A stretch of DNA of 64,000 bases from Falsiroseomonas bella (GCF_003173615.1 NZ_QGNA01000003.1:434001-498000); one strand, 5' to 3'. Counted from the first letter of the stretch, positions 20,823-39,726 are shown. Numbers and translations are program-made. The notes: generated by a model not told the origin, from the sequence alone.

Positions 20823-21505
20823 GCCTCCGGCGTCGCGTGGCGGCCGCGCAGCACGATGTCATGCGTGAAGCCGAGGAAGAAATCGCCGACCGAGGGCGGC
20901 GGCAGGAAGCGCGCGATCATGCGCGACCGCGCGGCGCCATCGGGGATCGCGTTCAGGATGCGGTCCAGCGCGTTCAGCGGCTCGCCGGGGAAATACATCT
21001 GCGTCACCAGCCGCGAGAGGCAGGACGGCCCATGCACCGAGAAATGCAGGTGCGGCGGGCGCCACCAGGTCTCCTGCACCGGCACGGCATAGGCGCCGGG
21101 CTTGATCGTGGTGAAGGCGTAGCGCCCATCCTCGTCGGTCAGCGCGCGTCCATGCCCCGTAAAATTCGGATCGAGCGGCGCGGCGCTGCCGTCATTGGCG
21201 TGGGCATAGCGCCCGGCGGCATTGGCCTGCCAGAGTTCCACCACGGCACCGGCCACCGGCCGCCCCGCCTCGTCGAGGATGCGGCCGCCGATCTGCATGA
21301 GCTGCCCGATAGCAGGCCGTCCGGGCGTCGCCTCCGCCAGGTTCACCGCACCGGGCACGAGCTTGCGGTGCAGCCTGACTGGCCCCGCCATCTCCGTACG
21401 GCCCGCCGGGCGCGGCAGCAGCGGCTGCGCCGGCGTGTGCGTCCAGGTGTTCGGATAGCCGGGAACCGGCACCTCGGGCTCGATGCCCTCGGGAAGCGCC
21501 GTCAT
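20819..21505 (-). CDS. pcaH: Protocatechuate 3,4-dioxygenase beta subunit (or related intradiol dioxygenase)
   Basis: The product has 228 residues (typical length 230-240). The Fe(III) ligands are visible by alignment with the known family pattern: Y100 (NAAGRYAH), Y139 (KPGAYAVP) and H152/H154 (RPPHLHFSVHG). The N-terminal part has YPNTWTHTPAQPLLPRP. It holds the active site of the alpha/beta dioxygenase that converts protocatechuate and O2 to 3-carboxymuconate. The start overlaps the stop of the hydratase beta gene (ATGA), as does pcaG with pcaH, so the four genes are tightly coupled. A different 3,4-dihydroxy aromatic acid as substrate is possible. Confidence 0.9.
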   Translation of the reverse strand: MTALPEGIEPEVPVPGYPNTWTHTPAQPLLPRPAGRTEMAGPVRLHRKLVPGAVNLAEATPGRPAIGQLMQIGGRILDEAGRPVAGAVVELWQANAAGRYAHANDGSAAPLDPNFTGHGRALTDEDGRYAFTTIKPGAYAVPVQETWWRPPHLHFSVHGPSCLSRLVTQMYFPGEPLNALDRILNAIPDGAARSRMIARFLPPPSVGDFFLGFTHDIVLRGRHATPEA

Positions 21506-22188
21506 GCGCCTGCTCCTTCGCGGTCCTGCGCGAGGCGCGCGAGGATTTCGGGCATCCGCGCGGCGGCACCGGCCTGCAGGCTCTGGAACAGGCTGTTGCC
21601 ATGCGCATCAATGCCGACGGTCAGCGGGCCGAGCCCTTCGACCCCGAGGCGCACCAGGCGGTAATGCGCGACCAGGTCGTTCCACGCGACCTCCTTCACC
21701 GCGCGGATGGCTGCCGTGTGCAGCGGCGCGCCGCCGCCGAGGAAGGAGAGGTAGACGCAGCCGACCTCCTGCATGGCCGCGACGCAGCCCGCATCGAGCC
21801 CCCCCTTCCCGCCCACCGCCGTCAGCCCGTAGTGGCGGATCAGCCGCGGCATCAGCGCATTGAAGCGCGTGCTGGTGGTGGGGTTCATGTAGAGGACCTC
21901 CAGCCCGCCATCCGCCGTGTCGCGGCTGTAGGAACCCAGATGCAGCAACGATCCGCCGGCGATCGCGATGGGCGGCGCCGCGTTGCGCTCGGCGCAGTCC
22001 AGCAGGCGCAGATGAGTCGGCAGCCCGGCAGTGATGACGATCTCGCCCTCCACCAGGATCACGTCGCCGGCGCGCAGGCTGCGCGCATCGGCCGGCGACA
22101 TCGGGAAGCGCATGCTTCGCATCCGATTCAGACCTTCGGTGCTCGTCGCCTCCGGCGCCTCCGCCCTTCGGTCATCGGAAGCGCTCAT
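21502..22188 (-). CDS. Fumarase class I / tartrate dehydratase-type hydratase, beta subunit
   Basis: The product has 228 residues matching the fumarase C-terminal (Fumerase_C, PF05683) domain that stands alone in two-subunit enzymes such as TtdB. Conserved pieces are LRAGDVILVEGEIVITAG, YMNPTTSTRFN, GKGGLDAGCVAAM and CVYLSFLGGGAP. A short charged leader (about 25 residues) precedes the fold, and MRSMRFPM offers internal starts. The ATG at 22188 overlaps the alpha-subunit stop. With the alpha subunit it should reversibly add water to an unsaturated dicarboxylate (fumarate, mesaconate, tartrate or a ring-cleavage product). Confidence 0.85.
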   Translation of the reverse strand: MSASDDRRAEAPEATSTEGLNRMRSMRFPMSPADARSLRAGDVILVEGEIVITAGLPTHLRLLDCAERNAAPPIAIAGGSLLHLGSYSRDTADGGLEVLYMNPTTSTRFNALMPRLIRHYGLTAVGGKGGLDAGCVAAMQEVGCVYLSFLGGGAPLHTAAIRAVKEVAWNDLVAHYRLVRLGVEGLGPLTVGIDAHGNSLFQSLQAGAAARMPEILARLAQDREGAGA

Positions 22189-23054
22189 TCGAAGCGCTCC
22201 ACGCTGCCATCGGCATGCAGGCGCGCGCGGGTACGGCGGTTGATCCAGCAGTTGAAGCAGACCGCGACGGGCGTGTAGCCGTGGCCCGCCGCGTAATCCA
22301 CATGCACGGCCAGCGCGGTGGTGTCGCCGCCCGTGCCCATCGGGCCGAAGCCCGTGGCGTTCACGGCGCGCAGCAGCCGCTCCTCCATCGCCGCCAGCAC
22401 GGGTTCCGGGTTCGTGCTGCCGACCGGGCGCATCGTCGCGTTGCTCGCGATCTTCGCCGCCACGTCTAAGCTGCCGCCGATGCCGACGCCGATGATCACC
22501 GGCGGGCAATGCTGCGAGCCCGCCTGCATCACCACCTTCATCACGTATTCCTCGATCTGCGCAAGCGTCGGGAAGGAGAAGGTCTCGAGCGCGGCCCAGC
22601 GGCCGGATCCGAGCGCCTTGGGCTGGCACAGGATCTCCACCCAGTCGGCGCCGCCGGCGACATCCCAGGTGATCAGCGGCATGTCCTTGCCCTTGTAGCC
22701 GCGCTCGTTCGTCAGCGGGTTCGTCACATGCTTGAGCAGCGGCGGGCTGATGCGCTCGACCAGCTCGTCGAAGCCGTCGCCGATCGCCTGCTTGATGTCG
22801 CCGTCGAGTTGCGCCGCCGTGCCGATGGTCACATGATAAACCGGCACGCCGGCATCGGAGCAGACGAAGCGCTCATCCTGCTCCGCGCGGCGCGCGCTGC
22901 CCAGCATCATGCGCAGGATCTGCCGCGCGCCCTCCTGCGTCTCGCGCGCAAGCGCCGCTTCCAGCCCGGCCTTGGTGTCGTCCGGCACCTTGCGCAACGA
23001 CCAGTCGTAGAGCTGCGCCGACAGCGCCTTCACCGCCGCATAGGTGATCGGCAT
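22185..23054 (-). CDS. Fumarase class I / tartrate dehydratase-type hydratase, alpha subunit (4Fe-4S)
   Basis: The product has 289 residues of the Fumerase (PF05681) family. Cysteines placed like the iron-sulfur ligands are C65 (FVCSDAGVPVYH), C183 (GSQHCPPVIIG) and C266/C269 (VCFNCWINRRT). The loops GGSLDVAAKIASNAT and GFGPMGTGGDTTAL are typical of substrate binding. It is the catalytic half of a two-subunit hydratase. As first gene of the operon with pcaHG, it probably acts on the aromatic catabolic route and not in the TCA cycle. A 111-bp region with a palindromic operator separates it from a divergent GST gene. Confidence 0.87.
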   Translation of the reverse strand: MPITYAAVKALSAQLYDWSLRKVPDDTKAGLEAALARETQEGARQILRMMLGSARRAEQDERFVCSDAGVPVYHVTIGTAAQLDGDIKQAIGDGFDELVERISPPLLKHVTNPLTNERGYKGKDMPLITWDVAGGADWVEILCQPKALGSGRWAALETFSFPTLAQIEEYVMKVVMQAGSQHCPPVIIGVGIGGSLDVAAKIASNATMRPVGSTNPEPVLAAMEERLLRAVNATGFGPMGTGGDTTALAVHVDYAAGHGYTPVAVCFNCWINRRTRARLHADGSVERFE

Positions 23055-23115
23055 GCACGCCCGTCCCCGAAGCCGGCGGGAGCTTAGGGCTGGACCGTGC
23101 CGGGGAAAAGGGCTT

Positions 23116-23133
23116 AAGTCATAAAGCTGACCT
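23116..23133. promoter_or_regulatory. Palindromic operator AAGTCA-N6-TGACCT (copy 1 of 2)
   Basis: AAGTCA TAAAGC TGACCT lies in the 111-bp divergent region between the hydratase/pcaHG operon and the GST operon. The same motif, 15 of 20 bases identical over 23114-23133, recurs at 33495-33514 in the other divergent region of this block. A weak plus-strand promoter, TGGACC (23091-23096), 17-bp spacer, TTAAGT (23114-23119), would place the operator on the -10 element, which fits repression. The regulator is not proven; the GntR protein at 29245 is the nearest candidate. Confidence 0.6.
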
Positions 23134-23165
23134 TTCGGCCGATCAGGGGAGGACGCGCGGAGCGC

Positions 23166-23777
23166 ATGATGAAGCTGCACTGGTCGCCGCGCTCGCCCTA
23201 CGTGCGCAAGGTCATGGTCGCTGCGCATGAGCTCGGCCTCGCCGACCGCATCCGCACCGTCCGCACCGTGGTCGCCATGCGCAAGCCGGCGCGGGAACTG
23301 CTGCCGGAGAACCCGCTGGGAAAAATCCCGACGCTGGTGCTGCAGGACGGGACGATCCTCTACGACAGCCAGGTCATCATCGAGTATCTCGACAGCCTGG
23401 CGGGCGGCGGAAAGCTGATCCCGGCCGGCGGCGCGGCGCGCTGGCAGGAATTGCGGCGGCACGCGCTGCTGGACGGCTTCCTCGACCTGCTCATCCTCTG
23501 GCGAAACGAGCGCGACCGTCCGCAGCCCCTGCCCGACCTGATCGAGGCCTTCGCGCTCAAGACCGACGCCGTGCTACCGGCGATCGAGGCCGAGATCGAG
23601 GCGATCGCGGCGGCTCCCCTCGGGCTGGCGCAGATCACCGCGGCGGTCGCGGGTGCCTATATGGATTTCCGCTTCGGCGATCTCGGCTGGCGGGCACGCT
23701 GCCCGCGCTTCTCCGCCTGGCAGGAGGGCTTCGCGCGGCGGCCGTCCATGATTTCCACGCCGATCGTGGACGCCTGA
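23166..23777 (+). CDS. Glutathione S-transferase N-terminal-domain protein
   Basis: The product has 203 residues. The thioredoxin-like half begins MKLHWSPRSPYVRKVMVAAHE, with SPYVRK where GSTs keep their catalytic Ser/Tyr, then GKIPTLVLQDGTILYDSQVI with the cis-Pro and the glutathione-binding DSQ. The helical half has AGAYMDFRFGDLGWR. It is first in the plus-strand catabolic operon and ends 5 bp before the CoA-transferase, so a role as isomerase or in removing reactive intermediates of that pathway is plausible. No thioether- or maleylacetoacetate-specific motif was recognised. Confidence 0.82.
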   Translation: MMKLHWSPRSPYVRKVMVAAHELGLADRIRTVRTVVAMRKPARELLPENPLGKIPTLVLQDGTILYDSQVIIEYLDSLAGGGKLIPAGGAARWQELRRHALLDGFLDLLILWRNERDRPQPLPDLIEAFALKTDAVLPAIEAEIEAIAAAPLGLAQITAAVAGAYMDFRFGDLGWRARCPRFSAWQEGFARRPSMISTPIVDA

Positions 23778-23782
23778 CGCGC

Positions 23783-24991
23783 ATGCCCGGACCGCTTTCG
23801 CATATCCGCGTGCTGGACCTCGGCCGCATCATGGCCGCGCCCTGGGCGACGCAGATCCTGGCCGATCTCGGCGCGGACGTGATCAAGATCGAGCGGCCGG
23901 GCGCGGGCGACGACACGCGCGCCTGGGGCCCGCCCTTCCTGAAGGCGGAGGACGGCACGCCGACGAAGGAAGCCGGATACTTTCTCGCGGTGAACCGCGG
24001 CAAGCGCAGCGTCACGCTCGACATCGCAAAGCCGGAGGGCCAGGCGATCGTGAAGCGTATCGCGGAAACCGCCGACGTGGTCGTGGAGAATTTCAAGGCT
24101 GGCGCGCTGGCGAAATACGGCTTGGATGCGGCCAGCCTGCGAGCGCAAAAACCGTCGCTGATCTACTGCTCCGTCACCGGCTTCGGCCAGGACGGGCCGC
24201 GGCGCGACCAGGCGGCCTATGACTTCATGATCCAGGCCATGGGCGGGCTGATGAGCGTGACCGGCGAACGCGACGGCGCGCCGCAGAAGGTCGGCGTGCC
24301 CATCGTGGACCTAATGACCGGCATGTACGCGACCGTCGCGATCCTCGCCGCGATCGCGAACCGCGAGCGCACCGGCCAGGGCGAGACGATCGACCTTGCC
24401 ATGCTCGACGTGCAGGCAGGCTTCCTGGCGAACCAGGCGATGAACTGGCTGGTCGGCGGCAAGGTGCCGCACCGCGCGGGCAACCGCCATCCGAACATCC
24501 AGCCGCAGGATGTGTTCCCGGCGAAGGACGGCCACATCGTGCTCGCGGTCGGCAATGACGGACAGTTCGCGAAGCTGTGCGAGGCGATCGGCCGACCGGA
24601 CTGGGCCGCGGATCCGCGCTTCATGAAGAACCAGGATCGCGTGCGGCACGAAGCGGCGCTGACGCCGCTGCTCGCGGACCGGTTCCGCGACTTCACCCGC
24701 GCGGAGCTGACCGCGCTGCTCGACGCGGCCGGCGTGCCATGCGGCCCGATCAACAGCGTGCCGGACGTCTTCGCCGATCCGCAGGTGCTGCATCGGCAGA
24801 TGCTGCGCGAACTGCCGCATCCGCTGGCCGGCCGCGTGCAGCAGGTGGTCAACCCGATCCGGCTGCAGGACGCGCCGCTGACCTTCGAGACGCCGCCGCC
24901 GACGCTCGGCCAGCACACGGCCGAGGTGCTGGGCGAACTCGGGATCAGCGATGCGGAGCGCGCGGCGCTCCGGGATTCAGGGGTGATCTGA
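23783..24991 (+). CDS. CaiB/BaiF family III CoA-transferase
   Basis: The product has 402 residues, opening HIRVLDLGRIMAAPWATQIL and GADVIKIERPGAGDDTR, with VNRGKRSVTLDIAKPEGQ and GFGQDGPRRDQAAYDFMIQA. This is the standard family III pattern. The catalytic aspartate is in GVPIVDLMTGMYATVA. Such enzymes move CoA from a donor such as succinyl-CoA to a free carboxylate in the cytoplasm. It is one of three CoA-transferases in this block, each in a different operon, and overlaps the next gene by one base (TGATG). The acceptor acid is unknown. Confidence 0.9.
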   Translation: MPGPLSHIRVLDLGRIMAAPWATQILADLGADVIKIERPGAGDDTRAWGPPFLKAEDGTPTKEAGYFLAVNRGKRSVTLDIAKPEGQAIVKRIAETADVVVENFKAGALAKYGLDAASLRAQKPSLIYCSVTGFGQDGPRRDQAAYDFMIQAMGGLMSVTGERDGAPQKVGVPIVDLMTGMYATVAILAAIANRERTGQGETIDLAMLDVQAGFLANQAMNWLVGGKVPHRAGNRHPNIQPQDVFPAKDGHIVLAVGNDGQFAKLCEAIGRPDWAADPRFMKNQDRVRHEAALTPLLADRFRDFTRAELTALLDAAGVPCGPINSVPDVFADPQVLHRQMLRELPHPLAGRVQQVVNPIRLQDAPLTFETPPPTLGQHTAEVLGELGISDAERAALRDSGVI

Positions 24992-25584
24992 TGGCGCCGC
25001 GCATCCCCCTGCCCGGTCGCGAGGATCTGGACGCGGCGCAGCGCGAGGTCTGGGACCGCGTCGTCTCGGGCCCGCGCGGCCAGGTGATCGGCCCGTTGCG
25101 CGCCGCGATCCACAACGCCGAGCTTGCCGGCCGCTGGTCCGCGCTGGGCGAGGCGCTGCGCTTCAACACCTCCCTGCCGAAGCACCTTTCCGAGCTTGCC
25201 ATCTGCGTCACCGGGCGTCGCTGGAGCAGCCAGGTGGAGTGGTTCGTCCATGCCCGCGTCGCCGCCGAGTCCGGCATCGCGCCCACGGTGCTGGATGCGA
25301 TCCGCGACGGCCGCGCGCCGGAGTTCAACGATGCGCAGGAGGGCGTGGTCTACGACTTCGCGCGCGAGCTGCAGGCCGATGGCCGCGTCTCGGACGCGAC
25401 CTACGCTGCCGCACGCGAGGCCTTCGGCGTGAAGGGCGTGGTCGAGCTGACGGCGCTGATCGGCTACTACACGATGGTCTCCATGACGCTGAACGCGCAT
25501 GGCATCCCGCTGCCGGATGGCGAGCCGGATCCGCTCACCGCGCCGTCGCGCGGCTTGTTCGACCTGCCGGAACGCGGGCGGTGA
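24991..25584 (+). CDS. Carboxymuconolactone decarboxylase-family protein
   Basis: The product has 197 residues of the all-helical CMD/AhpD fold (PF02627). Family features are LSELAICVTGRRWSSQVEWFVHARVA, with the EWxxH residues used by gamma-carboxymuconolactone decarboxylase, and ELTALIGYYTMVSMTLNA. The AhpD CxxC motif is absent, so a peroxidase role is unlikely. It is longer than PcaC (about 130 residues). It might decarboxylate or tautomerise a lactone made downstream of ring cleavage, but many family members have no known function. It lies between a CoA-transferase and a lactonase-like amidohydrolase, with overlapping ends on both sides. Confidence 0.82.
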   Translation: MAPRIPLPGREDLDAAQREVWDRVVSGPRGQVIGPLRAAIHNAELAGRWSALGEALRFNTSLPKHLSELAICVTGRRWSSQVEWFVHARVAAESGIAPTVLDAIRDGRAPEFNDAQEGVVYDFARELQADGRVSDATYAAAREAFGVKGVVELTALIGYYTMVSMTLNAHGIPLPDGEPDPLTAPSRGLFDLPERGR

Positions 25585-26435
25585 CGGAGCGCGTCGCGGC
25601 GCCCGACGTCTCGCGCACGCGGCATGCGGTGCCGGCGGGCGCCTGCGACTCGCACACCCATGTCTTCGACGCGCGCTTCCCGAACGGCCCCTCGCCCTAC
25701 GCGCTGCCGCTGGCATCGCTGGAGGTACACCAGGCGATGCGGGCGAGACTGGGCTGCGCGCGAGCCGTGCTGGTGCAGCCCGCGCCCTATGGCCGCGATC
25801 CCGCCTGCCTGCTGGATGCGCTCGCGCGCGACCCCTCGCTGCGCGGCGTGATGATCGCCGACGAGACGGTGACCGACGCGACGTTGGAAGCCTGGCACGC
25901 GGCCGGCGTGCGCGCGCTCCGCTTCACGGAGATGCGCGCGCCGGGCGGCAGCGGGCGCTATCCGGGCGCGATTGGCGTCAATGCACTGCAGCAACTCGCG
26001 CCACGGCTGCGCGCGCTTGGCTGGCAGGCGCATCTCTGGGCGGAAGCCTCGCAATGCGAGGCGTTGCTGCCGAGCCTCGCGAAGCTCGGCGTGCCGCTGG
26101 TGGTGGATCACCTCGCGATGCCGCGGGGCGCCGAGGACCCGGGCTTCGACAGCATCCTCGGCCATCTGCGCGATGGGCATCTCTGGGTGAAGCTCACACT
26201 CTGCCGCGTGCCGCGCGCGGGCGGGATCGAGACGCTGCGGCCGTTGCAGGACAGGCTGCTGGCCGCCAATCCGGATCGCCTGCTCTGGGGGTCGGACTGG
26301 CCGTATGTGCGCATGGCGCCCGCCCCGGATGCCGGCGCGATGCTCGACCTGTTCCTGGACTGGACGAAGGACGAGGACCTCGTACGGCGCATCTTGGTGG
26401 AAAACCCGACCCGGCTCTTCGGCTTCGACGACTGA
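25581..26435 (+). CDS. Amidohydrolase-2 family protein, LigI-like lactonase candidate
   Basis: The GTG at 25581 overlaps the previous stop (GTGA), giving 284 residues. It opens GACDSHTHVFDARFP (metal-binding HxH), then VVDHLAMPRG and LLWGSDWPYVRM with the final Asp, as in amidohydrolase-2 proteins such as 2-pyrone-4,6-dicarboxylate lactonase (LigI) and related sugar lactonases. LigI-type enzymes hydrolyse a pyrone or lactone ring. The neighbourhood (intradiol dioxygenase, CMD protein, RraA-family aldolase-like protein) makes a ring-cleavage lactone a reasonable substrate, but other lactones or amides are possible. A TctC gene follows 17 bp later with a GGGAGGAC site. Confidence 0.82.
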   Translation: MTERVAAPDVSRTRHAVPAGACDSHTHVFDARFPNGPSPYALPLASLEVHQAMRARLGCARAVLVQPAPYGRDPACLLDALARDPSLRGVMIADETVTDATLEAWHAAGVRALRFTEMRAPGGSGRYPGAIGVNALQQLAPRLRALGWQAHLWAEASQCEALLPSLAKLGVPLVVDHLAMPRGAEDPGFDSILGHLRDGHLWVKLTLCRVPRAGGIETLRPLQDRLLAANPDRLLWGSDWPYVRMAPAPDAGAMLDLFLDWTKDEDLVRRILVENPTRLFGFDD

Positions 26436-26452
26436 CAAAAGGGAGGACAACC

Positions 26453-27421
26453 ATGATCACCCGCAGGACAACCCTGGCCGCAATGGCCGTGCCGGCCCTG
26501 GCCCGCAGCGCCAGGGCGCAGGCCTTTCCCGACCAGCCGCTGCGGATGATCGTGCCCTTCGCCGCGGGCGGGCCTGCAGACCTCATCGCGCGCACCGTGT
26601 CCCGCGTCATGTCTGACCGCCTCGGCAAGCCCGTCGTGGTGGAGTCGCGCGCCGGCGCGGGTGGCTCCATCGGCGTGGATGTCGTGGCGAAGTCCCGGCC
26701 GGACGGGCATACGCTTGTGCTCGCCTCCTCCGGCGCGATCGTCATCCTGCCGCATATGCGCAGCAACATGCCCTACGATCCGCTTCGCGACCTCACCCCG
26801 ATCACGCAGGTGCTGGCGGTGCCGCAGATCGTCTCCGTCTCGCCCGGCCTCGGCGTACGCAACCTCGCCGAGTTGGTTGCCATGGCGAAGGCGCTGCCCG
26901 GGCAGCTTTCCTTCGGCTCGGCCGGCATCGGCTCCTCGCTCCACATGGCGGGCGAGCTGCTCAAGCTGCGCGCCGGCATCGACATCGTCCATGTCCCCTA
27001 TGGCGGCGCGGCACCGGCGGTCACCGACCTGCTCGGCGGGCGCATCCAGATCCTGGCGGCCGACGTGCCGGCGCTGCTCGGGCAGGTGCGCGCCGGCGCG
27101 TTGCCGGCGCTCGCGGTCACCTCGCGGGAGCGGTTGGCCATCCTGCCTGATGTGCCGACGGCCATCGAAGCCGGCGTCCCGGGCATGGTCAGCGAGACCT
27201 GGTACGGCATCTTCGGCCCCGCCGGCATTTCGGAAGAGCGTGTCGGGATCCTCGTCGATGCCGCGCGGGGCGCGCTGCAGGATGCGGAGGTGCAGCGCGT
27301 GCTGTCCGGCCAGGGCGGCCGGATTGTCGGCAGCACGCCGACCGAGTTCGTCGCCTTCATCCGCGAGACCTACGCCACCTGGGGCGAGGTGGTGCGCGCA
27401 ACCGGTGCGAAGCTGGAGTAG
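26453..27421 (+). CDS. TctC/Bug-family periplasmic binding protein (orphan)
   Basis: The product has 322 residues. The signal peptide is MITRRTTLAAMAVPALARSARAQ with a twin-arginine-like start. The mature chain opens PLRMIVPFAAGGPADLIARTV and has VVESRAGAGGSIGVDVVAKS and VPYGGAAPAVTDLLGGRIQ. It likely captures the carboxylate consumed by the surrounding CoA-pathway genes. No TctA/B is adjacent, so it would need a permease encoded elsewhere, for example at 10353 or 51105. Two bases after its TAG stop is a 33-codon remnant that looks like the C-terminus of a second Bug protein. Confidence 0.9.
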   Translation: MITRRTTLAAMAVPALARSARAQAFPDQPLRMIVPFAAGGPADLIARTVSRVMSDRLGKPVVVESRAGAGGSIGVDVVAKSRPDGHTLVLASSGAIVILPHMRSNMPYDPLRDLTPITQVLAVPQIVSVSPGLGVRNLAELVAMAKALPGQLSFGSAGIGSSLHMAGELLKLRAGIDIVHVPYGGAAPAVTDLLGGRIQILAADVPALLGQVRAGALPALAVTSRERLAILPDVPTAIEAGVPGMVSETWYGIFGPAGISEERVGILVDAARGALQDAEVQRVLSGQGGRIVGSTPTEFVAFIRETYATWGEVVRATGAKLE

Positions 27422-27423
27422 GC

Positions 27424-27521
27424 ATGATGCGACGCCGGCACCGTTCTGCCGCGGCCGTCGCGCCGGCGGCCGAGAGCGCGCGCTGGAAGCAGGTGATCGA
27501 GGCAGCGGGGATACGGGTGAA

Positions 27522-27525
<4 letters not shown>
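27424..27525 (+). pseudogene. Remnant C-terminal tail of a lost TctC gene
   Basis: A 33-codon frame (ATG 27424 or 27427 to TGA 27525) encodes a basic, low-complexity start followed by ESARWKQVIEAAGIRVK. That ending is the normal last helix of Bug proteins; compare ESERWGPVIRRGGISIQ at the end of the TctC at 33540. Its stop overlaps the ATG of the enoyl-CoA hydratase (ATGA), exactly as a full upstream gene in this operon style would. The simplest reading is that a tctC copy was deleted or recombined away, leaving its tail. A small expressed peptide is the less likely alternative. Confidence 0.6.
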
Positions 27526-28301
<776 letters not shown>

Positions 28302-28302
28302 C

Positions 28303-29235
28303 ATGACGGGGCGCGAGGCGATCCTGCTGCTCTGCCCCATCCCGGCTGACCTGCGGGCGGCACTGGCCGAGCGCTTCGACCTGGTGGAGGACAAGCCGGC
28401 GGACGGCCCGCGCCCCGGCTTCCGCATCGCCGTCTGCACCGCGATGCATGGCGCGGGCGCGGCGCAGTTCGACAGGCTCCCCGACCTGAGGCTGCTCTCG
28501 AGCCAGGGCACGGGGCTCGAGCGCATCGACCTTGGCGCCGCCGCGCGGCGCGGCATCGCGGTGGCCTACACGCCCGACGTCATGACGGAGGACGTGGCGG
28601 ATGCCGCGATCGGGCTGATGTACGGCGCCGCGCGGCTGGTGGCCGAAGCCGACCGCTTCGTGCGCGCCGGGCGTTGGGGCAAGGAGCGGATGCGCCCTTC
28701 CACCAGCCTGCACCGCAAGACCGCCGGGATCGCCGGGATGGGCAAGATCGGCCAGGCCATCGCACGGCGCTGCGCGGGCCTCGGCATGACCGTGCTCTGG
28801 ACCGGCCCGCGCGAGAAGCCTGATCTGCCCTACGGCTTCGTGCCCTCGGTGCTGGCGCTTGCGGAGCGATCCGACGTGCTGATCCTGGCGGTGCCGGGCG
28901 GCAAGGACACGGACCGCATGGCGGACGCCGCCGTGCTGCGGGCGCTCGGGCCCCGCGGCGTGCTGGTGAACATCGCGCGCGGCGGCGTGGTGGACGAGCT
29001 GGCGCTACTGGATGCGCTGGAGACGGGCGCGATCGCCGGCGCGGGGCTCGATGTCTTCGCGACGGAACCGGCGCTCGACCCGCGCTTCCTGGCTCTGGAG
29101 AACGTCGTGCTCGCGCCGCACTCGGCCTCCATCACGGTGGAAACGCGCGCGGCCGTGGTCTCCCGCATCGTCTCCGACATCGAGGCTTTCCGCGCCGGCC
29201 GCGACTTCCTGGACGCGGCCGCGGGCGCCGGATAA
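28303..29235 (+). CDS. D-isomer-specific 2-hydroxyacid dehydrogenase
   Basis: The product has 310 residues. The NAD-binding half has AGIAGMGKIGQAIARRC (Rossmann GxGxxG). The catalytic triad is visible as Arg in LVNIARGGVVDE, Glu in DVFATEPALD and His in VLAPHSASIT. It reduces a 2-keto acid or oxidises a D-2-hydroxy acid with NAD(P) in the cytoplasm, similar to glyoxylate/hydroxypyruvate reductases. It follows the enoyl-CoA hydratase-like gene after one base and precedes the GntR regulator by 9 bp, so it belongs to the catabolic operon. Substrate unknown. Confidence 0.88.
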   Translation: MTGREAILLLCPIPADLRAALAERFDLVEDKPADGPRPGFRIAVCTAMHGAGAAQFDRLPDLRLLSSQGTGLERIDLGAAARRGIAVAYTPDVMTEDVADAAIGLMYGAARLVAEADRFVRAGRWGKERMRPSTSLHRKTAGIAGMGKIGQAIARRCAGLGMTVLWTGPREKPDLPYGFVPSVLALAERSDVLILAVPGGKDTDRMADAAVLRALGPRGVLVNIARGGVVDELALLDALETGAIAGAGLDVFATEPALDPRFLALENVVLAPHSASITVETRAAVVSRIVSDIEAFRAGRDFLDAAAGAG

Positions 29236-29244
29236 GCATCGGTC

Positions 29245-30000
29245 ATGTCCTCGGCCATCCGTGCCACGCCCGCGATCGACCTCAGCCGCAGCGCGGTGTC
29301 GCGCTACATCCAGCTCGCCACGCTGTTCCGTCGCCGGATCGAGCAGGGCGCCTGGAAGCCCGGCGCGCAGATCCCGACGGTGGATGACCTGGCGGCGGAA
29401 TGCGGGGTCGCGCGCGCCACCATCCGCCAGGCGCTGGACCAGCTGGAGGCCGAGGGGCTGATCGAGCGCTTCCGCGCCAAGGGTACCTTCGTGCGCGCCG
29501 CGCCCGCCGCGAACCGGCTCTGGTGCGAAGTGGAGACGGACTGGTCCGGCCTGCTGCGCTCCCGCGAAGGGGCGGAGATCGAGACGCTGTCCATCCGCGA
29601 GAAGCTGCCCGCGACCGCCGTGCCGCCTGCGGAGATCGGCCGGCCCGCCGCGCTCTACCGCCACTTCCACCGCCGCCACTGGCGCGACGGCCAGCCCTTC
29701 CTGCTGGCCGATGTCTATCTCGACGAGCGGCTGGCGCCGAAGGTGACGGAGGAGGACCTGCGCACCAAGACCGCGCTGAAGCTGGTGGCGAGCCTGCCCG
29801 GCGTGCGGATCGGCGATGCGCGGCAGACGCTGACCATCGGCACCGCGGATGTCGAGACGGCGGCGGCGCTGCGGGTTCCGCTCAACGCCCCGGTCGCGCA
29901 TGTGCGCCGCGCCGCGGTGGATCAGCGCGGCGTGCTGGTGATGGTGGCCGACGGCATCTACCGCGGCGACGTGGTGCGGATCGACATCAAGCTCCGGTAG
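29245..30000 (+). CDS. GntR-family (HutC/UTRA type) transcriptional regulator
   Basis: The product has 251 residues. Residues about 17-85 form the winged helix: YIQLATLFRRRIEQGAWKPG, IPTVDDLAAECGVARATIRQ and LEAEGLIERFRAKGTFV. Residues about 100-250 form a UTRA ligand domain (ALYRHFHRRHWRDGQPFLLADVYL, VAHVRRAAVDQRGVLVMVADG). HutC-type repressors bind small carboxylates or sugar acids and release palindromic operators. As last gene of the operon starting at 23166 it is the nearest candidate for binding ARGTCATAnnnCTGACCT at 23116 and 33497. Those sites do not match the GTnTAnAC core usual for HutC proteins, so this is tentative. It converges with an acyl-CoA dehydrogenase gene, 3 bp away. Confidence 0.9.
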   Translation: MSSAIRATPAIDLSRSAVSRYIQLATLFRRRIEQGAWKPGAQIPTVDDLAAECGVARATIRQALDQLEAEGLIERFRAKGTFVRAAPAANRLWCEVETDWSGLLRSREGAEIETLSIREKLPATAVPPAEIGRPAALYRHFHRRHWRDGQPFLLADVYLDERLAPKVTEEDLRTKTALKLVASLPGVRIGDARQTLTIGTADVETAAALRVPLNAPVAHVRRAAVDQRGVLVMVADGIYRGDVVRIDIKLR

Positions 30001-30003
30001 AAT

Positions 30004-31065
30004 TCAGGACTCCGCCTCGCTCTCCGTCGCCAGGAAGCGGCGGCGATGCAGTGCGGCGGAGCCGAAGGCGTTCGCCAGCACCATCGCCTTCCGCGTGAAC
30101 AGGCCGACATCGTATTCGTCGGTGTAGCCGATGGCGCCGTGCAGCTGCACGGCGGCGCGGGTGACGAGCATCGCCGCCTCCGCCGCGCGCGCCTTGGCGC
30201 GGGAGACAGCGGCCTGGCGCTGCGTGTCGGTGCAGCCGGCATCGAGGGTCGCGGCCGTGGCTTCGACGCTGGCGCGCGTCAGCGCGATCTGGATGCGCAG
30301 GTCCACCGCGCGATGCTGCAGCGCCTGGAAGCCGCCGATGGGGCGGCCGAATTGCTGGCGCGTGCGCAGATAGTCCAGCGTCATTGCGAAGACGCGCTCC
30401 ATGACGCCGAGAAGGTAGGCGGCCGTCGCCAGCGCCGCCTCGTCCAGCGCCCGTGGCAGGGCGTCGCCCAGGCCGCCGAGGCGGCGGGTCGCGCCGGACC
30501 GCAGCGTCGCGACATGGCCGCCATCCTGCAGCATCGAGACGTCAAGCATCGGCGCTTCCGCCAGGTGCAATGCCAGGCCGTTGCCGTCATGGATCGGCAG
30601 CAGGAAACCCTGCGCCGCGCGCGCCGCCGGCACGAACAGCCGCGCCGCGCCGGGCGTGCCGGGCGCCTCCAGCGCATCAGGCCGTTCCTGCCAGGCCGTC
30701 GCGACGAAGCACTCGCCGGACAGCAGCGACGCCAGGTGATCCTCCGCGCCGACCGTCAGCAGCAGCGCGGCCGAAAGCTGCGCCGGGATCAGCGGTTCCG
30801 GCACGAGGGCGCGGCCGAGTTCCTCCGCCAGCGCGCAGCATTCGGCCATGCCAAGGCCGATGCCGCCCGCCTCCTCCGGCAGGCGCAGGCCGATCCAGCC
30901 CAGCTCGCCCATGCGGCGGAGCACCGCGGGATCGTGCCCGGCCTCGGTGAAGCGCAGCGCGCGGACGCGCCGCAGATCCCCGCCCGGCGGCGCGATCGCG
31001 GCCGCGCTGTCGCGGATCATCCGCAGCGAGTCCATCCGCGCGGCGTGGGCTTCGGCCTCGGTCAC
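30004..31065 (-). CDS. Acyl-CoA dehydrogenase-family protein (small partner)
   Basis: The product has 353 residues from a GTG at 31065 that overlaps the CoA-transferase stop (GTGA). It has the three-part acyl-CoA dehydrogenase build: N-terminal helical LGWIGLRLPEEAGGIGLGMAECCALAEELG, a reduced middle domain, and a C-terminal flavin helix RTRQQFGRPIGGFQALQHRAVDL and AAVQLHGAIGYTDEYDVG. It is shorter than a normal dehydrogenase (about 380), and its FAD-contact motifs in the middle domain are weak. In paired systems such a subunit forms a heteromer with a full partner, here probably the one at 32234 in the same operon. Confidence 0.83.
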   Translation of the reverse strand: MTEAEAHAARMDSLRMIRDSAAAIAPPGGDLRRVRALRFTEAGHDPAVLRRMGELGWIGLRLPEEAGGIGLGMAECCALAEELGRALVPEPLIPAQLSAALLLTVGAEDHLASLLSGECFVATAWQERPDALEAPGTPGAARLFVPAARAAQGFLLPIHDGNGLALHLAEAPMLDVSMLQDGGHVATLRSGATRRLGGLGDALPRALDEAALATAAYLLGVMERVFAMTLDYLRTRQQFGRPIGGFQALQHRAVDLRIQIALTRASVEATAATLDAGCTDTQRQAAVSRAKARAAEAAMLVTRAAVQLHGAIGYTDEYDVGLFTRKAMVLANAFGSAALHRRRFLATESEAES

Positions 31066-32237
31066 GGGCCCTCTCCCAGCCAGTCGCGCAGCACCTCCTC
31101 CGTGTGCTCGCCGAGGTCGGGCGCGGGCCGCGTGTAACGCGGCGGCGTTTCCGAGAAGCGGATCGGATTGGCGATTATTGGCGCGCCATTACCCTCCACC
31201 TGCGTGAAGACGCCGCGATGGCGCACCTGCGGGTCTTCCGCGACCGCGCCGAAATCGTTGATGGGACCGGAAGCGACGCCGACCGCGTTCAGCGCATCCA
31301 TCCATTCCCGCGCCTTGCGTGCGCGCAGCGCCTGCTGCAGCAGCGGCAGCATCTCCGCCTTGTGCGCCATGCGCTGGCGGTTGGTGGCGAAGCGTGGGTC
31401 GCCGGGCATGTCGGGCAGGCCCAGGACGCGGCAGAACTGCGCGAATTGCCGGTCGTTGCCGATGGCGACCATCAGCGGCCGGTCCGCGGTCTCGAAGGCC
31501 TGCCAGGGCGTGTTGATCTGGCTGGCCGCGCCGGCGCGCACCGGCATCCTGCCGGAGACCAGCCAGTTCATCGCGATATGCGAGTGCGCGGCGATCTGCG
31601 CATCGAGCAGCGCCAGGTCGATGTGCTGCCCGCGGCCGGAGACGGTGTCGCGGTGATGCAGCGCGGCCAGGATCGCGATGGCGGCGTAGAAGCCGGCATT
31701 GATGTCGGACAGGCTGTAGCCCGCCAGCACCGGGCCGGCGCCGGGCGTGCCATCCGGCTGGCCCGTCACGCTAATCAGCCCGCTCATCGCCTGGAAGATC
31801 GGATCGTAGCCGGGCAGCGGCGCATAGGGTCCGTCCTGGCCGAAGCCGGTGATCGAGCAATAGACCAGGCGCGGGTTGACGGCCGAGAGCGCGGCGTAGT
31901 CGAGCCCGTATTTCGCCAGGCCGCCGGCCCGAAAGTTCTCCAGGAACACATCGGCCTTCGCCGCCAGCGCGCGCAGCCTCGCCTGGCCTTCCGGCGTCGC
32001 GATGTCGAGCGCGATACTGCGCTTGTTGCGGTTCATCGCGAGGAAGGAGGAAGTGGCGCCGACCTCCCTGCCCTCCGCGTCGCGCGCGCGGAAGCCCATA
32101 CGGCGCACGTCGTCACCCGTGCCCGGCTGCTCCACCTTCACCACGTCGGCGCCGAAATCGCCCAGCATCTGCGCCGCCCAAGGGCCGGCGAAGACGCGCG
32201 TCATGTCCAGCACGCGGATGTTCGGCAGCGCGCTCAT
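31062..32237 (-). CDS. CaiB/BaiF family III CoA-transferase
   Basis: The product has 391 residues: NIRVLDMTRVFAGPWAAQML, GADVVKVEQPGTGDDVRR, MNRNKRSIALDIATPEGQ and SITGFGQDGPYAPLPGYDPIFQ. The catalytic Asp is in GYSLSDINAGFYAAIA. It transfers CoA between carboxylic acids. It lies between two acyl-CoA dehydrogenase genes with ATGA/GTGA overlaps on both ends, so the three proteins are made together. This suggests activation of an acid directly followed by alpha,beta-dehydrogenation, as for the succinate-derivative routes of aromatic breakdown. Substrate unknown. Confidence 0.9.
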   Translation of the reverse strand: MSALPNIRVLDMTRVFAGPWAAQMLGDFGADVVKVEQPGTGDDVRRMGFRARDAEGREVGATSSFLAMNRNKRSIALDIATPEGQARLRALAAKADVFLENFRAGGLAKYGLDYAALSAVNPRLVYCSITGFGQDGPYAPLPGYDPIFQAMSGLISVTGQPDGTPGAGPVLAGYSLSDINAGFYAAIAILAALHHRDTVSGRGQHIDLALLDAQIAAHSHIAMNWLVSGRMPVRAGAASQINTPWQAFETADRPLMVAIGNDRQFAQFCRVLGLPDMPGDPRFATNRQRMAHKAEMLPLLQQALRARKAREWMDALNAVGVASGPINDFGAVAEDPQVRHRGVFTQVEGNGAPIIANPIRFSETPPRYTRPAPDLGEHTEEVLRDWLGEGP

Positions 32238-33397
32238 GCCGGCAGGTCCAGCAGGCCGCGCGCGAGCGTGTTGCGCAGGATCTCCGAACTGCCGCCGAAG
32301 ATCGTCGTCGGACGCGCGAGAAGGAACTGTCCCGCCGGGTGCAACGCATCCTCCATCGGGTCCAGCAGCCCGGCATGGCCGCCGGCCAGTTCCAGCATCG
32401 CATCGGTGATGCGCTGGTAGAGCTCGGTCTGCACGATCTTCAGGATCGCGACATCGGGGCCGAGCGTCTCGCCGCGGCGGAGCGCCGCGGTGAAGCTCTC
32501 ATACAGCGCCTTGAGGTCCGCGAGCTCCAGCCGGAAGCGCGCATACTGGTCGAGGAACACGGGGTCCTCGGCGCGCCCCATCCGCTGCGCCAGACGCATC
32601 AGCGCAGCGAGGCCATTGGCCGAAAGCCGCGGCGAGCCGATGGCGACTCGCTCGAAGCCGAGCAGCGCCTTGGCATAGGTCCAGCCCCTGTTGACCTCGC
32701 CCACCAGCATGTCCTTGGGCACGCGGACATCGTCGAAGAAGACCTCGCAGAACTCGTCATGCAGGTCGAGATTGAGGATCGGCCGGATGGAGAGGCCCGG
32801 GCTGTCCGTTGGCAGCAGCAGGAATGAGATACCCTCCTGCTTCTTCGCGCCGCGGTCCGTGCGCGCCAGCACGAAGATCCAGTTGGCGTCGTTCGCGAAG
32901 GTCACCCAGGTCTTCTGCCCGTTGAGTACCCAATGGTCGCCGGCATCCGCCGCCTCCAGCCGCAGCGCGGCCAGGTCCGATCCGGCATTCGGCTCGGAAT
33001 AGCCCTGCGCCCAGATGTCCTCGCCCGAGAGGATGCGCGGCAGGAAGCGGCGCTTCTGCGCCTCGCTGCCGTGCTTCAGTAGAAGCGGCCCGAGCATCAG
33101 CACGCCCATGTCGCTGATGCGCGGGCAGCCCCAGCGCTCGAACTCCTCGATCATGATGAGCTGGCGCGTCGCGTTCAGCCCCATGCCGCCATGCGCGCGC
33201 GGCCAGGCGGGCGCCAGCCAGCCGCGGCGCGACAGGGCCAGGTACCAGGGCCGGTTCTCCCGCCAGTGCAGGCGGCGTCGCGGGAAGCGCAACTCGGGCG
33301 GCGTGTTCGCCTCGATCCAGCCGCGCACATGCGCACGGAAGGCGGCATCGTCCAGCGCATCCAGGTCTTCGAGCGTGAGCGGGGCAGGCTCGGCCAT
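32234..33397 (-). CDS. Acyl-CoA dehydrogenase-family protein (full-size partner)
   Basis: The product has 387 residues. It keeps the FAD/substrate motifs AQGYSEPNAGSDLAALRL and WVLNGQKTWVTFANDANWIF, the FFDDVRVPKDMLVGEVNRGW loop, and the C-terminal FGGSSEILRNTLARGLLDLP. It should oxidise an acyl-CoA to the enoyl-CoA, passing electrons to ETF. It is the first gene of a three-gene minus operon with the CoA-transferase and the smaller dehydrogenase-like protein. The 142-bp upstream region, divergent from the TctC genes, carries the palindromic operator at 33497 and a GCCTATAGGC palindrome at 33411-33420. Confidence 0.9.
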   Translation of the reverse strand: MAEPAPLTLEDLDALDDAAFRAHVRGWIEANTPPELRFPRRRLHWRENRPWYLALSRRGWLAPAWPRAHGGMGLNATRQLIMIEEFERWGCPRISDMGVLMLGPLLLKHGSEAQKRRFLPRILSGEDIWAQGYSEPNAGSDLAALRLEAADAGDHWVLNGQKTWVTFANDANWIFVLARTDRGAKKQEGISFLLLPTDSPGLSIRPILNLDLHDEFCEVFFDDVRVPKDMLVGEVNRGWTYAKALLGFERVAIGSPRLSANGLAALMRLAQRMGRAEDPVFLDQYARFRLELADLKALYESFTAALRRGETLGPDVAILKIVQTELYQRITDAMLELAGGHAGLLDPMEDALHPAGQFLLARPTTIFGGSSEILRNTLARGLLDLPA

Positions 33398-33496
33398 TCC
33401 TCTCCCTTCCGCCTATAGGCTAGGCTTTTCACTTAAGGGCCCGGCGCGAGGACTGTCCAGGCGGCGCGCCCTCGACAAGCGCCGGGAGCGCGAATA

Positions 33497-33514
33497 AGGT
33501 CATAGGACTGACCT
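33497..33514. promoter_or_regulatory. Palindromic operator AGGTCA-N6-TGACCT (copy 2 of 2)
   Basis: AGGTCA TAGGAC TGACCT is a perfect 6-bp inverted repeat in the divergent region between the acyl-CoA dehydrogenase operon and the TctC-IlvD-ligase operon. A plus-strand promoter candidate, TCGACA (33472-33477), 17-bp spacer, TAAGGT (33495-33500), overlaps it at exactly the same offset as in copy 1 at 23116. The shared core ARGTCATAnnnCTGACCT points to one common regulator. Confidence 0.65.
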
Positions 33515-33539
33515 AACGACACAAACAGGGAGGGAGGCC

Positions 33540-34526
33540 ATGCCAGCGCACCCGTATCGCCTTGCGCGCCGCGTCGTGCTGTTCGCGGCGGCGGCGAGCC
33601 TCGCTGCACCGCGCGTGCGGGCTCAGGGCTGGCGGCCGGACCGCCCGATCCGCCTCATCGTCCCCTTCGCCCCGGGTGGCGCGGCCGACACGATCGCGCG
33701 ACTGATCGCAGAGCCGCTGGGCCAGGATCTCGGCCAGCCCGTGACGGTGGAGAACCGCCCCGGCGGCGGCACCACCATCGGCGCCGTCGCTGTCGCGCGG
33801 GCCGCGCCGGACGGACACACGCTGCTCTACGCCACGCCGAATGTGCAGATCCTCAACCCCTTCCTGATGCGCAACCTGCCCTACGACCCGGTCGCCGACT
33901 TCGCGCCGGTCATCGCGCTGATGCGCGCGCCGAAGCTGCTGGTCGTCGGCCCCGACTTCGCGGCGCCTGATCCTGCGGGCCTGATCGCGCTGGCGAAGCG
34001 CGCGCCGCAGCCGCTGAGCTATGGCAGCGCAGGCGTCGCCTCCTCCGGCCATCTCGCCTCGGCGATGCTCGGCCAGATGGCGGATGTGGAGCTGCTGCAC
34101 GTGCCCTTCCGCGGCACCGCCCCGGCGGCGCAGGAAGTGATGGCGGGGCGCGTGGACTTCATGATGGACAACATCGCGACGCTGCTGCCGCTGGTGCGCG
34201 AGGGCAAGCTGCGCGCGCTGGCCGTCAGCACGGCCGAGCACGCCGCCGCCGCCCCGGAGCTGCCGCCGCTGGCACGCACCCTGCCAGGCTATCACGACGC
34301 GTCCTTCAACTACCTGCTGGCACCGGGACGCGCGCCACCGGAGATCATCGAGAAGCTGAACGCGACGATGAATGCAGTGCTGAACCTACCCATCGTCGCC
34401 GACCGCTTCCGCATCCTGGGCATCGAGAAGCTGGGCGGCACGCCGGCGGAGCTTGCGGCAGCCGTGAAGGAGGAGTCGGAGCGATGGGGACCGGTCATCC
34501 GCCGCGGCGGGATCAGCATCCAATGA
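33540..34526 (+). CDS. TctC/Bug-family periplasmic binding protein (orphan, tandem pair member 1)
   Basis: The product has 328 residues after a GGGAGGGAGG ribosome-binding site. The signal peptide runs about residues 1-29 (LARRVVLFAAAASLAAPRVRAQ). The mature chain has IRLIVPFAPGGAADTIARLI, VTVENRPGGGTTIGAVAVAR and VPFRGTAPAAQEVMAGRVD. The C-terminus is ESERWGPVIRRGGISIQ, the same type of tail found in the remnant at 27424. Its stop overlaps the ATG of a second TctC gene (ATGA). Two different Bug proteins in tandem suggest two related ligands or a recent duplication that diverged. Confidence 0.9.
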   Translation: MPAHPYRLARRVVLFAAAASLAAPRVRAQGWRPDRPIRLIVPFAPGGAADTIARLIAEPLGQDLGQPVTVENRPGGGTTIGAVAVARAAPDGHTLLYATPNVQILNPFLMRNLPYDPVADFAPVIALMRAPKLLVVGPDFAAPDPAGLIALAKRAPQPLSYGSAGVASSGHLASAMLGQMADVELLHVPFRGTAPAAQEVMAGRVDFMMDNIATLLPLVREGKLRALAVSTAEHAAAAPELPPLARTLPGYHDASFNYLLAPGRAPPEIIEKLNATMNAVLNLPIVADRFRILGIEKLGGTPAELAAAVKEESERWGPVIRRGGISIQ

Positions 34527-35488
34527 GCGCCCTTTCCCGACGCGCCCTGCTTGCGTCGCTGCTGCTGCCGGCCGTCGCGACGGCACAGACCGAGACTTGG
34601 CCGAGCCGCGCCATCACCCTGGTCGTGCCATTCGCGCCGGGCGGCCCCGTGGACAACGTCGCGCGCCCGCTGGCGGACGGGCTGCGGCGACATCTCGGGC
34701 CGGTCGTCGTGGAGAACCGCGCCGGCGCCGGCGGCGTGGTCGGCACGCGCCTGGTCGCGGCCGCACGACCCGACGGCTACACGCTCCTGGTCGGCTCCCC
34801 GGGACCGCTGGTGATCGCGCCCGCGGCCAGCGCCGATGCGCCCGACCCGCTGCAGGCGCTGGCGCCCATCGCGCTGATCGCAAGCAGCCCGCAGATCCTG
34901 GCGGTGAATGCCGAGCTTCCGGCGACGACGCTCGCCGAATTCGTCGCGCTGGCACGCACGCGACCCGGCGGGCTCAACATGGGCTCGGCCGGGATCGGCA
35001 CGACGCCGCATCTGGCGATGGAACTGCTCGGGCAGATCGCCTCCGTGCGCTTCGAGCACATTCCCTATCGCGGCACCGGCGCGGCGCTGCCAGACCTCGT
35101 CGGCGGCAAGATCGACGGGCTGTTCGGCGACATCTCCGCGGTGCTGCCGCTGCTGCCAGGCGGCCGGGTGCGTGCGCTGGCGATCACCGGCGACAGGCGC
35201 TCTCCGCTCGCGCCTGACATCCCCGCGGCCGCGGAGCTCGGCTTGCCCGCGCTGCGCGTGCGCAACTTCCAGGCGCTGTTGGCCCCCGCAGGCACGCCGG
35301 CGCCGATCCTCGATCGTGTCGCCGCCGCGGTGACGGCGGCGCAGCAGGACGAGGCGGTGCGCGCCGCCCTTACGCGCCAGGGTGCGGAAGCGGTGCCGAG
35401 CAGCCCCGCGCAGCTCACCACCTTCCTGCAGGAGGAGCGGGCGACCTGGGATCCGATCGTCAAGGCGATCGGCCTGACGCTGCGATAG
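34523..35488 (+). CDS. TctC/Bug-family periplasmic binding protein (orphan, tandem pair member 2)
   Basis: The product has 321 residues from ATG 34523. The signal peptide is short, MSALSRRALLASLLLPAVATAQ. The mature part reads AITLVVPFAPGGPVDNVARPL, VVVENRAGAGGVVGTRLVAAA and IPYRGTGAALPDLVGGKIDGL. It probably binds a carboxylate for the IlvD-RraA-ligase operon that follows. A 111-bp gap with no strong terminator separates it from the dehydratase gene. No membrane subunits are adjacent. Confidence 0.9.
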   Translation: MSALSRRALLASLLLPAVATAQTETWPSRAITLVVPFAPGGPVDNVARPLADGLRRHLGPVVVENRAGAGGVVGTRLVAAARPDGYTLLVGSPGPLVIAPAASADAPDPLQALAPIALIASSPQILAVNAELPATTLAEFVALARTRPGGLNMGSAGIGTTPHLAMELLGQIASVRFEHIPYRGTGAALPDLVGGKIDGLFGDISAVLPLLPGGRVRALAITGDRRSPLAPDIPAAAELGLPALRVRNFQALLAPAGTPAPILDRVAAAVTAAQQDEAVRAALTRQGAEAVPSSPAQLTTFLQEERATWDPIVKAIGLTLR

Positions 35489-35599
35489 CCATCTGGCAGG
35501 GCGGTGGCGGCGAGGGGGAACTCGGCCCCTGCCCCGCTTCCCCTCGGCGGCCGCCTGTCCGACAGTGTCGCGCGCCACGACCACGCCAGAGGCCAAGAG

Positions 35600-37345: not shown

Positions 37346-37360
37346 GCGAAGGCGAAGTCG

Positions 37361-38080: not shown

Positions 38081-38082
38081 GC

Positions 38083-39708: not shown

Positions 39709-39726
39709 CGCGCAGGGAACACCGGC

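What the first reader, a model, noticed from the sequence alone, without database searches (positions are those of the whole stretch)
23091..33514. One palindromic operator shared by two divergent promoter regions, linking four catabolic operons
Seen: AAGTCATAAAGCTGACCT at 23116-23133 and AGGTCATAGGACTGACCT at 33497-33514. Over 20 positions (23114-23133 against 33495-33514) 15 are identical, with core ARGTCATAnnnCTGACCT. In both places a weak plus-strand promoter with a 17-bp spacer puts its -10 two bases ahead of the operator. Both lie between divergent operons of CoA/aromatic-acid genes. Inference: a single regulator, perhaps the GntR protein at 29245, controls all four units as one regulon. 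The sites do not match the usual HutC GTnTAnAC core, so another regulator is possible.
Basis: partly seen in the sequence, partly recalled or inferred. Interest (0 to 1): 0.75.

Follow-up and report, generated by a model that had tools for sequence, protein, structure and literature searches.

The report
GntR regulon operator for catabolic operons
A short palindromic DNA switch really does sit in both promoter regions; it follows one regulator gene, located between them, across many bacterial genera, so these neighbouring carbon-degradation operons are most likely one self-regulated circuit, although no experiment has shown it yet.

Summary
Both sites are real. In the 5.9-Mb genome they are the only exact matches to the 22-bp motif, and the reversed pattern finds none. 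All three overlap the -10 of a promoter whose -35 (TGGACC, TCGACA, TGGACA) is 17 bp away.

The palindrome AGGTCA-N6-TGACCT recurs upstream of the orthologous operons throughout the genus (probably Falsiroseomonas), even where gene order has changed, and precedes an unlinked aconitase/LeuCD-like operon in relatives.

It tracks the HutC-type GntR protein at 29245. The two genus members lacking this gene have no exact site. A matrix trained on genus sites found 95 intergenic and 3 coding hits in 68 gntR loci, from Roseomonas to Bradyrhizobium, Sphingomonas and Pseudomonas; reversed, none.

Best explanation: this GntR represses, and autoregulates, one catabolic regulon. The operator spacing, GT-N10-AC, is not the usual HutC GT-N4-AC, though the published SdhR consensus shares it. 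Two of the three NagR base-reading residues are replaced here. Binding, the inducer and the fum promoter are untested.

The parts
23114..23135 (+). Operator O(GST/fum), 22 bp TTAAGTCATAAAGCTGACCTTT (18-bp core 23116-23133)
   Evidence: Exact match to the genus motif; one of only two in the genome; conserved at the same place in G009, G010, G014 and G157
23091..23119 (+). Promoter of the GST operon: -35 TGGACC (23091-23096), 17-bp spacer, -10 TTAAGT (23114-23119) overlapping the operator
   Evidence: TGGAC at the same spacing in G007, G009, G010, G014 and G157; -35-like hexamers peak at a 17-bp spacer over 183 oriented sites
33495..33516 (+). Operator O1(TctC), 22 bp TAAGGTCATAGGACTGACCTAA (18-bp core 33497-33514, perfect AGGTCA-N6-TGACCT)
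   Evidence: identical core in G007
33472..33500 (+). Promoter of the TctC operon: -35 TCGACA (33472-33477), 17-bp spacer, -10 TAAGGT (33495-33500)
33415..33436 (-).
   Evidence: Third-best match in the whole genome, 2 mismatches; PWM score 6.9, below the threshold of 12 used elsewhere; counterpart in G007; in other genus members the ACAD operator lies at a similar short distance from the ACAD start
33431..33459 (-). Promoter of the ACAD operon: -35 TGGACA (33459-33454), 17-bp spacer, -10 TTAAGT (33436-33431) overlapping O2
   Evidence: same geometry (TGGACA-N17-TAAAGG) at ACAD in G002, G003, G004
29245..30000 (+). GntR/HutC (UTRA) regulator, proposed to bind the operators; last gene of the GST operon
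   Evidence: Pfam GntR + UTRA; closest solved relatives YvoA/NagR and DasR; co-occurs with the motif
23166..30000 (+). GST operon: GST, CoA-transferase III, unnamed protein (24991-25584), amidohydrolase, TctC-type binding protein, enoyl-CoA hydratase, 2-hydroxyacid dehydrogenase, gntR
   Evidence: Gene calls and Pfam/NCBIfam
20244..23054 (-). Fum/pca operon: class-I fumarase/tartrate-dehydratase-like alpha and beta subunits, protocatechuate-3,4-dioxygenase-like beta and alpha subunits
30004..33397 (-). ACAD operon: acyl-CoA dehydrogenase, CoA-transferase III, acyl-CoA dehydrogenase
33540..41675 (+). TctC/IlvD operon: two TctC-type binding proteins, IlvD/L-arabinonate-dehydratase-like, RraA-like, AMP-forming acyl-CoA ligase, CoA-transferase III, enoyl-CoA hydratase

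Best explanation
The palindrome AGGTCA-N6-TGACCT is the operator of the GntR/HutC-type regulator encoded at 29245-30000. Without its inducer, which is unknown but probably a pathway acid or CoA ester, a dimer binds over the -10 element and start region of the GST, TctC and (through O2) ACAD promoters and keeps RNA polymerase out. The site at 23116 also serves the divergent fumarase/dioxygenase operon. Because gntR closes the GST operon, the circuit is negatively autoregulated. Shown by sequence: the sites, their overlap with conserved promoter elements, their conservation, and their linkage to gntR. Inferred: direct binding, repression rather than activation, the inducer, and control of the fum operon in this strain.
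For: Genome: only two exact motif matches, and the third best is O2 in the same intergenic region. Genus: every fumarase ortholog at 79% identity or more (13 genomes, own included) and every ACAD ortholog at 81% or more (11 genomes) has the palindrome upstream within 0-3 mismatches, although ACAD lies next to unrelated genes in several species. Inserted 2-hydroxyacid-DH genes are flanked by two sites. In five species the site precedes an unlinked LeuCD-like/TctC operon, whose relative lies in the TctC operon in G007 and G009. Co-occurrence: gntR is present in 13 of 15 genus genomes; 12 of the 13 have 0-mismatch sites and G009 has 1-mismatch sites; the two without gntR have no exact site. In 220 family genomes 6 of 7 motif-bearing genomes carry gntR, against 14 gntR carriers in all, P = 1.4e-7, or 4e-4 without the genus. 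PWM: 95 intergenic and 3 coding hits in 68 gntR loci (1.06 Mb), reversed PWM 0, column-permuted PWMs 0-5, and 0 hits in 0.16 Mb of control loci. In other genera sites flank gntR itself. Promoter overlap: -35-like hexamers peak at a 17-bp spacer.
Against: No binding or expression data. gntR shares its distribution with the whole catabolic cluster, so co-occurrence alone cannot separate it from the genes it accompanies. Where gntR is unlinked (G001, G002, G003, G008) no clear site precedes it. In G019 and G025 the sites are degenerate. No minus-strand -35/-10 was recognised for the fum operon. The operator spacing is not that of the typical HutC site. A few of the 68 test loci come from genomes whose sites trained the PWM.
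Confidence: 0.85

Rival explanations
1. The palindrome is bound by a different regulator (LysR, TetR, MarR or IclR type) encoded elsewhere, and gntR merely travels with the cluster.
For: The 6-bp-spaced inverted repeat is unlike the usual HutC GT-N4-AC core (PMC4494728); a LysR gene sits beside the ACAD operon in G004 and G006; LysR, TetR and MarR families often use spaced palindromes (general knowledge).
Against: The LysR neighbour is present only in some species. In most other genera, and in Bradyrhizobium, Rhodoplanes, Sphingomonas and Pseudomonas, the sites stand beside gntR itself, often on both sides. No other regulator was seen to recur, although not every locus was annotated. Changes at NagR contact positions offer a reason for the unusual site.
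Confidence: 0.1
2. The conserved block is mainly promoter sequence (-35 TGGAC, -10 TWAAGT) of a shared or alternative sigma factor, and the palindrome is incidental.
For: -35-like hexamers recur 17 bp from the block.
Against: Only about 20 of 183 oriented sites carry a recognisable -35 at that spacing. Conservation is symmetric over both arms, including the arm downstream of the -10. The motif is largely restricted to gntR-bearing genomes.
Confidence: 0.03
3. GntR binds the sites, but as an activator or dual regulator rather than a plain repressor.
For: Some sites lie 60-120 bp from a start codon, and the effect on fum cannot be read from its promoter.
Against: All three recognised promoters in the window have the operator over the -10 and start region, a repressor position; many sites lie 20-60 bp from the start codon.
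Confidence: 0.12

Closest known systems
NagR/YvoA (Bacillus subtilis) and DasR (Streptomyces), GntR/HutC subfamily
   Same: GntR wHTH plus UTRA domain, the closest solved structures. Repressor that controls its own catabolic operon. NagR Arg48, which contacts a base, is kept as Arg57 in the window protein.
   Different: By the printed alignment NagR Arg38 corresponds to Asp47 (Asp or Glu in all 19 aligned homologs) and wing Gly69 to Ala78. The usual HutC operator has 4 nt between GT and AC; here it is 10.
SdhR (HutC subfamily, predicted by comparative genomics)
   Same: Published consensus TCTTATGTCTTATATAAGACATAAGA (quoted in PMC4494728) also has 10 nt between GT and AC, i.e. GTC-N8-GAC.
   Different: AT-rich with an extra outer repeat. 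Its protein sequence and regulated genes were not available here, so relatedness was not tested.
HutC (histidine utilisation repressor)
   Same: Best NCBIfam hit, TIGR02018 at 97.5 bits.
   Different: Far below that model's cut-off of 220 bits; no hut genes recognised among the neighbours annotated.
PcaQ, PcaR/PcaU regulators of protocatechuate genes (named from general knowledge)
   Same: They also control protocatechuate dioxygenase operons.
   Different: LysR- and IclR-type proteins; here the linked regulator is GntR/UTRA.

Membership tests
GntR/HutC-type regulator | N-terminal GntR winged helix and C-terminal UTRA domain | tested here: met
   PF00392 at 65.9 bits (cut-off 27) and PF07702 at 70.8 bits (cut-off 23.8)
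GntR/HutC-type regulator | Operator with the GTnTAnAC core (4 nt between GT and AC) | tested here: not met
   Sites have GT-N10-AC; rule from PMC4494728, which also lists exceptions, so domain membership stands but the site is atypical
GntR/HutC-type regulator | Direct binding of the protein to the operator | not testable with these tools
   Needs gel shift or footprint
Histidine utilisation repressor HutC (equivalog) | TIGR02018 score above cut-off | tested here: not met
   97.5 bits against 220
One conserved regulon | Sites upstream of orthologous operons in several genomes with independent gene order | tested here: met
One conserved regulon | Presence of sites follows presence of the regulator | tested here: met
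   Genus and family surveys; one exception, G222, where a single 1-mismatch site is found in a genome with no gntR at the threshold used
Repressor operator | Overlap with promoter -10 or start | tested here: met
   Three promoters in the window; spacer peak at 17 bp
Protocatechuate 3,4-dioxygenase | NCBIfam equivalog cut-offs | tested here: inconclusive
   Alpha 145.5 (cut-off 126.25) met, beta 235.9 (cut-off 296.4) not met

The most novel reading that the evidence does not exclude
A widespread, so far undescribed branch of HutC-type GntR repressors, marked by PTV[DE] in place of the NagR-type Arg38 position and by a wing Ala, reads a GT-N10-AC operator instead of GT-N4-AC. It governs a mobile CoA-dependent catabolic module (GST, CoA-transferase III, amidohydrolase, enoyl-CoA hydratase, TctC receptors, hydratases) in Alphaproteobacteria, Burkholderiales and Pseudomonas.
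Probability: 0.6. Interest if true: 0.6.

Novelty: new variant of a known kind. Interest (0 to 1): 0.5.

Why it matters
It assigns a binding site and target genes to an unnamed regulator conserved across several proteobacterial orders, and so ties together operons of unknown substrate as one pathway. The substrate can then be sought by induction. It also gives a testable case of how HutC-type regulators change operator spacing and specificity: known contact residues are altered and more than a hundred natural sites can be aligned.

Tried and rejected
Bare palindrome with up to 2 mismatches: too many coding matches (277 per strand) to define a regulon, so AT flanks were added. Regulon membership of genes near other 1-mismatch matches (phoD-like, glyoxalase, transposase neighbourhoods): not accepted, because the contexts were inconsistent or could be Pho-box look-alikes. 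The LysR gene next to ACAD as regulator: rejected, not conserved. HutC (histidine) identity: rejected on score. Literature: no paper found for Roseomonas, GntR and operator; SdhR source paper not held. No structure prediction was run; a monomer model would not settle the spacing question.

Full report
WHAT IS THERE. Written symmetrically they are AGGTCA-N6-TGACCT, perfect at 33497-33514 and with one mismatch at 23116-23133. In the window no other exact match exists. In the whole genome (5.94 Mb, 14 contigs) the palindrome with AT flanks, WWARGKCAN6TGRCCTWW, has 0-mismatch matches only at these two places and none for the reversed control. Of 17 bare-palindrome matches with at most one mismatch that were examined, 15 lie inside predicted genes and the two window sites lie between genes.

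A THIRD SITE. With a version that allows the right-arm variants seen in other genera, the two window sites again rank first genome-wide. The next best, with 2 mismatches, is window 33415-33436 on the minus strand, TTAAGTGAAAAGCCTAGCCTAT, in the same intergenic region. It is weak by the symmetric matrix (score 6.9) but has a counterpart in G007 and lies close to the acyl-CoA dehydrogenase (ACAD) start, as the ACAD operators of other genus members do. I call it O2.

PROMOTERS. GST: TGGACC-N17-TTAAGT. TctC: TCGACA-N17-TAAGGT. ACAD on the minus strand: TGGACA-N17-TTAAGT. In each the -10 is the first six bases of the 22-bp operator. TGGAC at this spacing is kept in G007, G009, G010, G014 and G157 upstream of GST, and TGGACA upstream of ACAD in G001, G002, G003, G004 and G008. 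Over 183 oriented sites, hexamers with at least 5 of 6 matches to TTGACA peak at a 17-bp spacer (10, against 0-4 at other spacers). No comparable minus-strand promoter was recognised for the fum operon.

CONSERVATION. Orthologs of the first fumarase-like gene and of the first ACAD gene were taken from relatives. In all genus genomes with a close ortholog the palindrome lies upstream: 13 of 13 for fumarase and 11 of 11 for ACAD, own genome included, 0-3 mismatches. Gene order differs greatly. The ACAD operon is next to a pseudouridine synthase gene, a LysR gene or a short-chain dehydrogenase gene in different species, yet keeps the site. Eight species have a 2-hydroxyacid dehydrogenase gene between fumarase and GST, with a site on each side of it (seven; for G002 the second site is listed). 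In G007 fumarase has moved away from GST and kept a weak site of its own, and GST has a site shared with the divergent dioxygenase genes. In G002, G004, G006, G012 and G013 a site precedes an unlinked operon of aconitase/LeuC-like, LeuD-like and TctC-type proteins. Similar genes follow the TctC pair in G007 and G009. Thus the regulon is broader than four operons in relatives.

THE REGULATOR. The protein at 29245-30000 has GntR and UTRA domains. Orthologs occur in 13 of 15 genus genomes. Twelve of those have 0-mismatch sites and the thirteenth, G009, has 1-mismatch sites; G005 and G011, which lack the gene, have no exact site. In 220 genomes of the family, 14 carry the gene, 7 carry the motif and 6 carry both, P = 1.4e-7; without the genus 3 of 4, P = 4e-4. 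Genomes are related, so these are guides rather than strict probabilities. In 289 genomes of the class the strict motif occurs only in this genome. A weight matrix trained on genus sites was run over 68 loci around gntR homologs from named genomes. It gave 95 intergenic and 3 coding hits above 12, none with the reversed matrix, 0-5 with column-permuted matrices, and none in control loci totalling 0.16 Mb. A few of the 68 loci overlap the training genomes. Hits lie beside gntR in Roseomonas, Pseudoroseomonas, Rhodoplanes, Bradyrhizobium, Sphingomonas, Rhizorhabdus and Pseudomonas, often on both sides of it. Adjacency to the regulator gene across such distances is the strongest argument for GntR as the binding protein.

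HOW IT PROBABLY WORKS. Shown: operator over the -10 and start region, several operons with one motif, regulator gene inside the regulon. Inferred: binding, repression, release by an inducer, negative autoregulation through the GST operon. The substrate is not identified. The enzymes (CoA-transferases resembling succinate-glutarate and mesaconate CoA-transferases, dioxygenase-like subunits, hydratases, acyl-CoA dehydrogenases, TctC receptors) point to aromatic or dicarboxylic acid breakdown.

COMPARISON WITH THE KNOWN. HutC-type sites usually have 4 nt between GT and AC, with listed exceptions (PMC4494728). Here the distance is 10, as in the published SdhR consensus quoted there. In NagR three features read DNA: Arg38, Arg48 and wing Gly69 (PMC4333415). 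By the phmmer alignment and the ortholog alignment these correspond to Asp47, Arg57 and Ala78. Position 47 is Asp or Glu in all 19 aligned sequences. Arg57 is kept in all but the second G009 homolog (L123), which has Pro there. This is a reading of two alignments, not a structure. It fits a site that is not canonical.

LIMITS. Everything here is sequence comparison. 

Noticed in passing
L151, L153, L154, L155 (site near 4000 in each): A similar block (TAAAGTCATCGTACTGACCCAA and variants) lies about 40 bp upstream of a predicted secreted protein gene (about 500 aa, possibly a PhoD-type phosphatase) in four species. It may be a Pho box or an extra regulon member.
   Followed up: partly
L100:335, L116, L118, L119, L120 (about 30-80 bp upstream of gntR): Where gntR stands apart from the catabolic operons, a degenerate, conserved block AAAGGCGAATGATNTGGCCTT (AGGGCAAATGATGTGGCCTT in L116) precedes it in species of two genera, possibly an autoregulatory operator.
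   Followed up: partly
L123 / L231 (G009 contig C2): A second gntR homolog (67% identity) that lacks the conserved recognition-helix Arg (VAPATIR) and has no strong site nearby.
   Followed up: no
window 8778-9788, 26453-27421, 33540-34526, 34523-35488: Several TctC-type solute receptor genes in one window, most of them without obvious neighbouring membrane partners.
   Followed up: no
L187 (G222, site at 3620): One motif match in a small, more AT-rich family genome with no gntR detected at the threshold used; whether it is inside a gene was not settled.
   Followed up: partly
window 24991-25584: Conserved regulon protein of 197 aa with no hit in Pfam (E 1e-5) or NCBIfam (E 1e-10), yet kept next to the CoA-transferase gene in most gntR loci, including Pseudomonas and Bradyrhizobium.
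   Followed up: partly
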